Notes under the pieces: generated by a model
Seen by the model: the letters and a program-made list of their open reading frames with translations, nothing else
What the model was told of the DNA's origin: nothing
The model's database searches: none
NCBI GenBank assembly: GCA_025463925.1
Contig: JAODBK010000084.1
Location: 1-36,870, forward strand
Direction of reading: 5' to 3'
Length of the DNA stretch: 36,870 nucleotides
Source of the DNA: Acidimicrobiales bacterium
Lineage (GTDB): Bacteria > Actinomycetota > Acidimicrobiia > Acidimicrobiales > AC-14
Part shown: piece after piece, positions 22,856-25,800 of the stretch
How the letters are laid out: each line of letters begins with the position of its first letter
Position numbering within the stretch: the stretch's first letter is position 1
Translations under genes and position numbers: made by a program

Positions 22856-25800
22856 TCAGTCGAGCGAGATCGGCTGGTCGTCGGGGTCGAGATCCACCGT
22901 GGTCGTGCCGGCCTCCTTGGCGGCCCGCTCGCCGATCACCTGCTGGCGGATGCGCTCTGAGAGCTCGACCATCAGCTCGGGATTCTCGGCGAGGAACTGC
23001 TTGGCGTTCTCGCGGCCCTGACCGAGCTGCTCGCCGTCGTAGGTGAACCACGCGCCCGACTTCTTCACCAGCCCCATGTCGACACCGATGTCGAGGATGC
23101 CGCCCTCGCGGCTGATGCCCTTCCCGTACATGATGTCGAACTCTGCTTGGCGGAATGGCGCACTGCAGTTCGAGGCCACGATGTCGTTGGCGACGAGCGT
23201 GTGGTGCTCATCGACTTCGACGTCGTAGATCGGGCGCCACTCGGCCGGCTCGACCCCGACGATGCGGTCGTACCAGACGTCCTCGTCGAGCACGCTTCGC
23301 AGGAACTCGCTGTCGAGCGCATCGGCCAGCCGCTCGACGCGATCGCGCCGCAGCCGCCGAATGCCGAGCACTCCCGGCAGTCCTTGCGACGCGTCACCCT
23401 CGCCGACGAGCGTGGCCGCCAACTGCGGCGTCACACCGAGACCCCGCAGATACGCCAGCACCGGCTCCGCCTGCGGCTTCGGCAGATAGACGCGCTGCGA
23501 GCCGCGGTGGGTGCGCAGCGCCGGATCGGCCAATGCCCCGGTGAGCGCGATTCCTCTCGGGCCCCACATCGGGATGACGTCGGCAAAGCGGCGGACGTTG
23601 TCGATCCCGCTGATCCGCGTGTCCCAGCACGGCAGCTTGCCGAGAACTCGCCGTCCCTTGACGATGCTCGGCCGCTTGTTCTTGGGGTTGTAGGACTGAA
23701 CGGCGCTGCCGATGCCCCAACGGAGCAGGAGCCAGTGCACCTGGTTCGCCAGTTGCTCCGATGTCGTCGTGAGGCCGAGGCGGAGGCCGCCGGTCTGCTC
23801 GCGACTCACGTAACCGTCGGACTCCCAGATGCCGAACAAGAGGTTGGCCACGACCTCAGCCGACACGTCGTCGGCGAAGAACGGCGCCGGGATGCGCTTG
23901 GTCGGGGCCAGATGGCCGTGGATGCCGGCCCACCGCGTGAGCTCGAGCACGCCGTTCTTCTCACCGATCCGGTGCGAGAAGCTCGTCTCGATGCCCCGAC
24001 GGCGGCTGTCGCACCCGAGTGACGACGCGATCGCGATCGCGTCCTCCTGCAACGACTCCTGCATGTTGAAGAACGCGCACGGCGTCTTGCCACCGACGTA
24101 CCCGTCACCGATGAGGTATCCCAACATCCGGGCGTGATCGACGGGCACCGGCTCGACGTCACCGAACTGGCCGACCCGGCGCGGTCGAGCGACGGTGTCG
24201 CCGACTGCCAGCGCGCCAGCCTCCTGCCAGCCGCGATCGGTGAGCACCTTGTGGTCGGGGGTGATCCAGAGCTCGGTGCCGTCGCGCAGTCGCAGGCCGA
24301 TGCACTCGGCTTCGCCCTGATCGAAGCGCTGCGTGATCGGCCGGACGTGCAGCTTGCCGAGCTTGTCGGCGGACGCGACGTGGCTGCCGACGCCATTGGT
24401 GACGATGTCCTCGATGCGCTCGGTGAGACCCGTGACGGGATCGAAGACCTTCGTGCCGGCGGCGAAGCACTTGTTCTTCACGACCTTCACGCGCGTGCGG
24501 TTGCCGACGACCTCGACGCCGTCCTTGATCGACTCGATGCGCCGGATGTCGAGCCGAACCGAGCTGTAGAACTTCAGCGCCCGACCACCCGGGGTGGTTT
24601 CGGGTGAGTTGTGCACCATGACGCCGTCGACGAAGTAGTTGTGCGTGCCCTCGACCTCGATGTCGAACCGGTGGTTGCTGCGGCCACCCGAGACGGTGTT
24701 GATCGATGCAATCGGCATCGGGACCAGTTCGTCGCGTGCCGGCGTGAACACCGGCTCAACCGCAAACCGACCTTGGTAGCGAGGAAGCAGCTTGTACTGC
24801 ATCGACGGATGCACGAACGGCGCGATGAGGGCATGGAGCTTGGCCGTCTCATCCTTCGGGAACTGCAACACCGCCTTGCCGGCGCGCTCGATGAGCGTCG
24901 GCCGGATCCCCCACGTGTCGGCCAAGTGGCTGACCAGACGCCCCCGGGAGTCCGGGGACATCGCCTCGATAGAGATCTCGGAACGGCTGCTGCCATCCTT
25001 GGTCCGCTCTTGGAGGCCCTTGGCCCGAAGCGTGAAGTCGCCGTCGTCCATGTACCAGAGGGCGAGCGCGAGTGGCGTCAGCTGCTTGAGATGGTCGTGG
25101 CTCAGCACCTTCTTGCCGCCGATGTCCATGGCGCGCTGCAGCTCGGCCAACTCGGGCAGTGGCTGCACGTCGTGGAAGATGGCGCCGTTGGCGTTCGTCG
25201 ACCGGCTCACACCGACGTTCGCGAACAGCGACGCCTTCCAGTCCCCATAGGCGGCTTGCTCGGCGCTGTGACCCCAGCGCAGCCGAGCACCGTGGCCGCT
25301 GCGCGTCGGCGAGAGCGCGCTGCCCCCCATGAGGCCGCCGAGCACCACCTCCCACTGGAAACTCGAGAGGTGATGCGGAACCGACTGCAGCACCCGGTCG
25401 CCGACCGCGAGCTCTTGTGCTTCGCGCCACCCACCGGGTGTCATGACCTGATGGTTCGGTGTGCATGCGAACTGCGCACGACCGTTCCCACCGGGCTTCG
25501 CGACCTGGAACGAGAGGAACGTCTCGGTGCGACCATTGTCGAACCAATTCACGATCTTGCGAGGGACGATCGCATCGCTGGCCGGGTCATAGCTGAGCAC
25601 TTCGACCGGCAACTTCTGGTTGACGATCTTGCCGATCTTCTCTTGTGATCCGTCGGCCAGCGTCACACGAGTGTCATAGGAAAAACAACCGAACATGACT
25701 CCGATCTTTTCGCGCAACTGGTTGATGAAGACCGCGATCGTGTCGGTCTTGCTGAGGGTGCCGGTGAGCTTGCGCAGCGCCTGGCTCATGAGGCGGGCCT

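What the first reader, a model, noticed from the sequence alone, without database searches (positions are those of the whole stretch)
23168..25687. One recA gene with inteins at both known mycobacterial insertion sites
The reading frame splits cleanly into three RecA exteins totalling 350 residues. The first intein is at MFG/SPETT (the M. leprae site) and the second at NK/CSAPF (the M. tuberculosis site), with only 46 extein residues between them. Mycobacterial RecAs that I know carry one or the other. Two autonomous splicing events would be needed before RecA is active, so intein splicing could delay or tune the SOS response.
Basis: partly seen in the sequence, partly recalled or inferred. 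Interest (0 to 1): 0.85.

Follow-up and report, generated by a model that had tools for sequence, protein, structure and literature searches.

The report
recA gene carrying two self-splicing inteins
This bacterial DNA-repair gene carries two self-removing protein inserts at the two insertion sites known from tuberculosis and leprosy bacteria; the arrangement is real but recurs in other actinobacteria, some with three inserts, so it is a rare member of a known kind of multi-intein gene.

Summary
One 1,144-aa frame (22856-26290, minus) splits into RecA exteins of 201 + 46 + 103 = 350 aa, a 360-aa intein (24608-25687) and a 434-aa intein (23168-24469). The second is a homologue of the M. tuberculosis RecA intein at the same site. 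The two carry different LAGLIDADG endonuclease families. It is not a chimera: an exact junction-pair search of 84,980 species genomes gave 12 more recA loci of this kind, including the complete chromosome of Ca. Mycobacterium methanotrophicum and the isolate Haloechinothrix alba; three of the 12 have a third intein in the P-loop. In a phylum sample, 12 of 388 genomes with recA hold two or three inteins in it. The a+b combination changes at least 5 times on the RecA tree, and the window's nearest intein relatives are in single-intein genes, so stepwise invasion is likeliest, though intein a and b distances covary among doubles. Splicing residues are intact. The first endonuclease has lost a catalytic Asp; the second looks intact. 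recA has a LexA-type box. Tuning of SOS by splicing is neither supported nor excluded. Multi-intein genes are known (dnaB, mcm, polB); I found no recA case in the library searched.

The parts
22856..26290 (-). recA precursor gene, GTG start, 1,144 aa, only recA found in the genome
25688..26290 (-). N-extein, RecA residues 1-201 (P-loop GPESSGKS uninterrupted, so third site 'c' is empty)
24608..25687 (-). intein a, 360 aa, inserted MFG|SPETT (L2 loop, M. leprae site as recalled); C1 ... VMVHN|S
   Evidence: AlphaFold2 model pLDDT 93.4
24836..25354 (-). LAGLIDADG_2 (I-SceI-like) endonuclease domain of intein a; first motif GLMGGSAL has lost the catalytic Asp
   Evidence: PF03161 E 1.6e-28; PDB profile match to I-SceI about 2e-11; Foldseek I-WcaI/I-SceI; Asp present in 54 of 63 intein a, not here
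24470..24607 (-). middle extein, 46 residues (SPETT...VVKNK)
23168..24469 (-). intein b, 434 aa, inserted VVKNK|CSAPF (M. tuberculosis site); C1 ... DIVASN|C, penultimate Ser instead of His
   Evidence: PI-MtuI homologue E 2e-42; model pLDDT 91.6
23573..23857 (-). LAGLIDADG_3 match of intein b (second motif IWESDGYV; the first motif GYLIGDGYV lies upstream in the intein); both motifs intact
   Evidence: PF14528 E 5e-14
22859..23167 (-). C-extein, 103 residues, begins with Cys, the +1 nucleophile of intein b
   Evidence: (RecA_C)
26383..26396 (.). LexA/SOS-type box CGAACGAACGTTCG, 92 bp upstream of the recA start codon
   Evidence: 2 matches in window, 0.10 expected by chance; that this is the SOS motif is recalled

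Best explanation
An actinobacterial recA gene has been invaded twice by different homing inteins: intein a in the L2 DNA-binding loop and intein b next to the conserved KNK lysines. Both look like class 1 inteins (C1, block-B TxxH, block-F Asp, C-terminal Asn, +1 Ser or Cys). Each excises itself from the precursor and leaves a normal 350-aa RecA. The two were most likely gained in separate homing events from single-intein recA alleles circulating in the phylum. Intein a's endonuclease has since decayed, while intein b may still home. The elements are best seen as tolerated mobile passengers. Shown here: anatomy, intact splicing residues, recurrence, separate endonuclease families, nearest relatives in single-intein genes. 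Inferred: that both splice and in any order, the order of gain, the endonuclease states, and neutrality.
For: Continuous frame and domain calls. Splicing residues are invariant in 63 of 63 intein a (C1, T, H, D, penultimate H, N; block-F His 62 of 63) and, except the penultimate residue, in 20 of 20 intein b. The +1 residue is Ser in 63 of 63 a and Cys in 20 of 20 b. Intein a and b share only a weak Hint-domain similarity (33% over 112 aa, E 6e-9) and have different endonuclease families. Among the inteins collected, the window's nearest intein a is in G019 (76%, a-only) and nearest intein b in G215 (72%, b-only), neither a double. The 13 a+b rows (triples included) need 11 changes on the RecA tree, of which well supported branches force at least 5. 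In Ca. M. methanotrophicum intein b sits in the mycobacterial b clade, while intein a sits with Haloechinothrix, apart from five mycobacterial a inteins. That looks like stepwise assembly.
Against: Among 11 of the 14 parsed double carriers intein a and b distances covary strongly (Mantel r 0.70, p 2e-4; 0.745 given RecA distance; p 6e-4 when shuffled within two blocks), and intein a does not follow RecA (r 0.16, p 0.15). This would fit the pair moving together; the correlation is 0.94 in the block of five and 0.40 in the block of six that holds the window. Phylum-wide, sites are co-occupied more often than independence predicts. Intein b has a penultimate Ser, which could slow C-terminal cleavage. 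No splicing was observed.
Confidence: 0.8

Rival explanations
1. The two inteins spread together: one double-strand break and a long conversion tract carries both (co-homing), so double alleles descend from a few double donors.
For: Intein a and b distances covary among 11 doubles beyond RecA distance. a-c pairs also covary (r 0.44, p 0.0016; 0.36, p 0.0028 given RecA; 11 carriers). The sites are only 138 bp apart.
Against: Doubles do not form one clade on the RecA tree (at least 5 changes forced); on the intein a tree the a+b-only label is forced to change at least 4 times; on the poorly resolved intein b tree a+b needs 3 changes. The window's closest collected inteins are in single-intein genes. 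Haloarchaeal double mcm inteins home very poorly into empty alleles (PMC10643990, passages and introduction read). The cleanest pair (Haloechinothrix / Ca. M. methanotrophicum) weakened once other mycobacterial b inteins were added.
Confidence: 0.2
2. The double intein is a regulatory device: RecA becomes active only after two splicing events, which delay the SOS response or make it conditional (on ssDNA, redox or metals).
For: recA has a LexA-type box. RadA and DnaB inteins show conditional splicing (PMC5790916 and PMC6195587, passages read). Intein b lacks the usual penultimate His.
Against: Patchy presence: 2 of 380 recA-positive genomes of the order have a+b, and the other sampled members of the window's family are intein-free, a-only or P-loop-only. 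Endonuclease motifs are kept in intein b, as expected of a mobile element. PMC4031507 (2014; passages) states that no physiological role for conditional splicing was then known. That the M. tuberculosis intein does not impair RecA in M. smegmatis is recalled, not read.
Confidence: 0.1
3. Assembly artefact joining a site-a allele with a site-b allele.
For: The genome is a 119-contig assembly with 3.08% contamination.
Against: Exact in-frame junctions at both ends of both inteins. Same architecture in a complete chromosome (NZ_CP097320.1), a DSM isolate (NZ_FZNW01000009.1) and a same-order genome of about 10 contigs (G052). Single recA in the genome.
Confidence: 0.02

Closest known systems
M. 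tuberculosis RecA intein (PI-MtuI), site b
   Same: Same insertion site, homologous splicing domain over both halves (E 2e-42; 54-57% identity in the Foldseek alignments of about 100 columns)
   Different: Penultimate residue is Ser here; a second, different intein lies 46 residues upstream
M. leprae-type RecA intein, site a (site identity recalled)
   Same: Same site and family as the inteins of 5 of 14 sampled genomes of the Mycobacterium genus code g251
   Different: 57-59% identical to four of those five (the fifth was not in the A1 alignment); first LAGLIDADG Asp lost
M. smegmatis DnaB with two inteins (PMC6195587, passages read)
   Same: Two different inteins in one DNA ATPase, related singly to an M. 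leprae and an M. tuberculosis intein (PMC8529194, passages)
   Different: There one is a HEN-less class 3 mini-intein; here both are full-length with class 1 residues
Haloferax mediterranei MCM double intein (PMC10643990)
   Same: Two LAGLIDADG inteins in one replication/recombination gene; co-occupancy above expectation
   Different: Archaeal mcm; both HENs active there; the authors report no evidence of co-homing
Pyrococcus/Thermococcus RadA P-loop intein (PMC5790916, passages)
   Same: RecA-superfamily recombinase with an intein; its P-loop site corresponds to the third recA site 'c' found here in relatives
   Different: Site c is empty in the window; the RadA intein is a single mini-intein with ssDNA-stimulated splicing

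Membership tests
Class 1 intein (intein a) | N-terminal Cys/Ser, block-B TxxH, block-F Asp, C-terminal (H)N, +1 Ser/Thr/Cys | tested here: met
   C1, T, H, D, H, N all present; +1 Ser
Class 1 intein (intein b) | N-terminal Cys/Ser, block-B TxxH, block-F Asp/His, C-terminal Asn, +1 Cys | tested here: met
   All present; penultimate assisting His is Ser, as in 8 of 20 b inteins, with A and Q in one each
Class 1 intein (both) | Autocatalytic splicing to ligated exteins | not testable with these tools
   needs expression
M. tuberculosis-type RecA intein (site b) | Insertion after the KNK lysine, homologous to PI-MtuI | tested here: met
M. leprae-type RecA intein (site a) | Insertion MFG|SPETT and homology to mycobacterial site-a inteins | tested here: met
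   that M. leprae itself uses this site is recalled
Active LAGLIDADG homing endonuclease, intein a | Acidic residue in both LAGLIDADG motifs | tested here: not met
   Motif 1 is GLMGGSAL; motif 2 WYMDDG is intact
Active LAGLIDADG homing endonuclease, intein b | Acidic residue in both LAGLIDADG motifs | tested here: met
   GYLIGDGYV and IWESDGYV; cleavage activity not testable
Bacterial RecA | RecA core and C-terminal domain, 350 aa after removal of inteins | tested here: met
Conditional (regulatory) intein | Splicing rate changes with a relevant cue in native exteins | not testable with these tools
   no biochemical data

The most novel reading that the evidence does not exclude
In Actinomycetota recA is a three-site intein hotspot (P-loop, L2 loop, KNK lysines). 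Occupied sites promote further occupation and intein pairs partly move together, contrary to the interference seen in haloarchaeal mcm. Because all three sites lie in ATP- or DNA-binding elements, complete splicing acts as an AND gate that sets how fast newly induced RecA becomes active after DNA damage.
Probability: 0.1. Interest if true: 0.8.

Novelty: new member of a known kind. Interest (0 to 1): 0.42.

Why it matters
recA was the first bacterial intein gene, and its two sites were known from different species (recalled, and PMC5050341 passages). The finding shows that both, and a third P-loop site, can fill at once. In my phylum sample 12 of the 40 genomes with an intein in recA have more than one there. 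That gives a bacterial counterpart to the haloarchaeal mcm question of whether neighbouring inteins help or hinder each other. It also gives a natural precursor that needs two or three splicing events before a DNA-damage protein can work.

Tried and rejected
Chimeric assembly: rejected. Duplication of one intein into a second site: rejected, because the endonuclease families differ and only the Hint domain is weakly alike.

Clean co-transfer of a double from a Haloechinothrix-like donor to a Mycobacterium: first suggested. It was weakened when four other mycobacterial genomes with a RecA-b intein were found and Ca. M. methanotrophicum fell inside the mycobacterial b clade with three of them (the fourth, L136, was not parsed by the script).

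Site co-occupancy as evidence of facilitation: strong phylum-wide, but within families only a-c stays significant (p 0.0093) and a-b does not (p 0.20). An earlier version counted G530 as a P-loop carrier; its contig ends there, so one search dropped it.

Different endonuclease decay in single and multiple carriers: not significant (Asp kept in 36 of 38 versus 18 of 22, p 0.18). Viral carriers of the double: none matched the exact pattern. Phage records similar to intein a (26) or b (2) are all under 60% identity.

In the surveys, genomes whose recA was cut by a contig end or frameshifted counted as empty: G421, G425, G443, G507, G514, G530, G640 and G756 in the phylum sample; G049, G097, G151, G165, G187, G233, G246, G251, G267, G271, G288, G315, G318, G336, G339, G352, G370 and G381 in the order sample. 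Of these G233 and G271 have a gap of about 1.05 kb at site a amid broken frames and may be damaged site-a carriers, so the site-a count of the order is a lower bound. G232 was counted as empty too.

Full report
WHAT IS THERE. The recA gene runs on the minus strand from GTG at 26290 to a stop at 22856-22858, 1,144 codons without a stop. Pfam finds RecA, RecA_C, Intein_splicing and two different LAGLIDADG families. NCBIfam finds two N-terminal and two C-terminal intein splicing stretches. The pieces are: N-extein 201 aa (25688-26290), intein a 360 aa (24608-25687), middle extein 46 aa (24470-24607), intein b 434 aa (23168-24469), C-extein 103 aa (22859-23167). The exteins sum to 350 aa. It is the only recA found in the 4.08-Mb genome. 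The intein N-terminal model finds one more intein in the genome, in a dnaE-like gene on contig 66 (gene name from my reading of the sequence).

SITES. Site a follows residue 205 of the M. tuberculosis RecA chain and site b follows residue 251. From established RecA biology (recalled), a lies in the DNA-binding L2 loop and b directly after the KNK lysines that contact ATP across the subunit interface. Intein b is homologous to PI-MtuI over both halves of its splicing domain. Intein a has an I-SceI-like endonuclease. Both models are confident (pLDDT 93.4 and 91.6).

RESIDUES. In 63 intein a sequences C1, block-B T and H, block-F Asp, penultimate His and final Asn never vary; block-F His varies once. 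In 20 intein b sequences C1, T, H, D, H and N never vary, but the penultimate residue is His in 10, Ser in 8 (window included), Ala in 1 and Gln in 1. Four of six b-only genes of the same order (G074, G086, G088, G215) also have the Ser, so it is a lineage variant, presumably functional. The first LAGLIDADG Asp of intein a is Gly in the window; it is Asp in 54 of 63, and 3 of the other 9 are mini-inteins. Intein b keeps both motif acids.

RECURRENCE. A DNA pattern for 'end of intein a, exactly 46 extein codons, start of intein b' matches, among the 48 loci then fetched, only the window's own two and G052. Scanned over 84,980 species genomes it found 12 loci: Actinobacteria QS_8_72_14, a Ca. 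Aeolococcus MAG, two Nocardioidaceae MAGs, two Acidimicrobiia MAGs, Euzebyaceae, Ilumatobacteraceae, Nitriliruptoraceae, Haloechinothrix alba DSM 45207, Pseudonocardia MAG-71 and the complete chromosome of Ca. Mycobacterium methanotrophicum. The pattern is exact and wants His-Asn before the first junction, so 12 is a lower bound. Nine of the 12 give one complete frame (1,157-1,675 aa stop to stop). L050 and L054 are cut by contig ends and L059 has broken frames. L050 is probably misbinned: that MAG has a second, intein-free recA, while the partial L050 extein groups with the window's order. QS_8_72_14, Nitriliruptoraceae and Pseudonocardia are triple, with an intein also in the P-loop (GPE[AS]SGK|C...HN|T). 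No viral contig matched.

SURVEYS. Order sample: 397 genomes, 380 with a RecA match, 49 suspicious ones re-searched. Site a alone 20 (G045 cut by a contig end, G007 spread over two contigs), b alone 7 (G338 cut), a+b 2 (window and G052, another family), P-loop alone 1. Phylum sample: 396 genomes at least 90% complete, 388 with RecA, 54 re-searched. Site a alone 24, b alone 1 (cut), P-loop alone 3 (G525 over two contigs), a+P-loop 8, a+b 3, all three 1; so 12 of 388 are multiple. The suspicious genomes were picked by weak or multiple RecA scores, because long match lists are cut; genes cut or frameshifted beyond reading counted as empty. In the genus of Ca. M. methanotrophicum 1 of 297 genomes has the exact junction pair and 5 of 297, itself included, have a RecA-b intein.

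CO-OCCUPANCY. Phylum-wide, a with b is 4 against 0.46 expected (Fisher 3e-4) and a with P-loop 9 against 1.1 (3e-8). With shuffling inside families the values are 4 against 2.7 (p 0.20) and 9 against 5.3 (p 0.0093). In the order, a with b is 2 against 0.52 (p 0.09). There is no sign of avoidance; much of the excess is clustering by family.

ORIGIN. On the RecA tree the 13 a+b rows (triples included) need 11 changes and well supported branches force at least 5 (75 rows; unparsed, cut or frameshifted rows left out; one bad fragment, G007C, remained). On the intein a tree the a+b-only label is forced to change at least 4 times; on the weakly resolved intein b tree a+b needs 3 changes. Among the sequences collected, the window's nearest intein a (G019, 76%) and intein b (G215, 72%) are in single-intein genes, while its nearest RecA is intein-free (G002, 85%). 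Against this, intein a and b distances covary among 11 of the 14 parsed doubles (r 0.70; three left out for mini-inteins or a doubtful extein), also given RecA distance; intein a does not track RecA, intein b does partly (r 0.56). The correlation is carried mostly by five rows (r 0.94) and is 0.40 in the six that include the window. Some joint movement, or shared donor pools, is therefore possible.

WHY SITE b IS RARE (inference). Inteins at a are followed by Ser in 63 of 63, at the P-loop by Thr in 14 of 14 and at b by Cys in 20 of 20. Empty a sites already have Ser (29 of 29 read in 30 intein-free order loci; 16 of 18 other parsed empty sites, Asn in 2) and empty P-loops Ser or Thr. Empty b sites seldom have Cys: 17 of 396 phylum genomes by an exact pattern that misses AGY serine, 12 of 47 in the window's order and 5 of 349 outside (p 8e-9); 9 of 30 intein-free order loci. 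Several sit beside b carriers of the same genus code (G579 with G652, G534 with G608, G018 with G074). They may be footprints of lost inteins or permissive targets; I cannot tell which.

CONTROL OF recA. A CGAACN4GTTCG box lies 92 bp upstream of recA. The only other exact copy in the window is at 8308-8321, inside the mechanical ORF (8205-9074) that holds lexA and upstream of its DNA-binding domain. recA is thus very probably in the LexA regulon. Splicing would come after that.

PRINT. Nine searches of the held open-access library (listings seen, listing 40 of 53) showed no paper whose listing describes two or three inteins in recA. Subscription papers and InBase were not available. Passages read: PMC8529194, PMC10643990 (and its introduction), PMC5050341, PMC5790916, PMC4031507, PMC6195587. 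They establish two-intein dnaB, double mcm inteins and three inteins in one polB, so the kind is known.

VERDICT. Real, well formed, rare and recurrent. New as a recA arrangement as far as I could search, but a new member of the known multi-intein genes. The SOS-tuning reading is open.

Noticed in passing
window 8205-9074 (+), box at 8308-8321: lexA lies in the same window and has the same SOS-type box upstream of its DNA-binding domain as recA.
   Followed up: partly
L100 (G652), L122, L131: Triple-intein recA genes with inteins in the P-loop, L2 loop and at the KNK lysines.
   Followed up: partly
L091-L098: Eight recA genes with P-loop plus L2-loop inteins, more common in the phylum sample than the a+b pair.
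   Followed up: partly
L077, L078 (G436): One genome with two recA copies, both with a site-a intein, and a third, divergent RecA hit.
   Followed up: no
L080, L081, L082: Site-a mini-inteins of 166-170 aa without endonuclease in one family, f83.
   Followed up: no
L137 (Acinetobacter plasmid NZ_CP018333.1): Plasmid RecA with a distant intein (25% identity) three residues downstream of site a (MFGDPT|C...HN|CTPGG), a further RecA site; 111 Acinetobacter plasmid records match intein a weakly, one was looked at.
   Followed up: partly
L140 (own genome, contig 66): A third intein of the window's genome, in a dnaE-like gene.
   Followed up: no
L120 (G232): recA with an in-frame insertion of about 100 aa near PF00154 position 144 in a 524-aa frame; nature unknown.
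   Followed up: no
G233:C7 and G271:C21: Frameshifted recA genes with a gap of about 1.05 kb at site a, possibly damaged intein carriers.
   Followed up: no
L117 (G215): b-only recA whose L2 loop reads KSGVMCG instead of KIGVMFG.
   Followed up: no
L050 and L125 (one MAG): Ca. Aeolococcus MAG holds two recA genes; the double-intein one branches with the window's order and is probably misbinned.
   Followed up: partly
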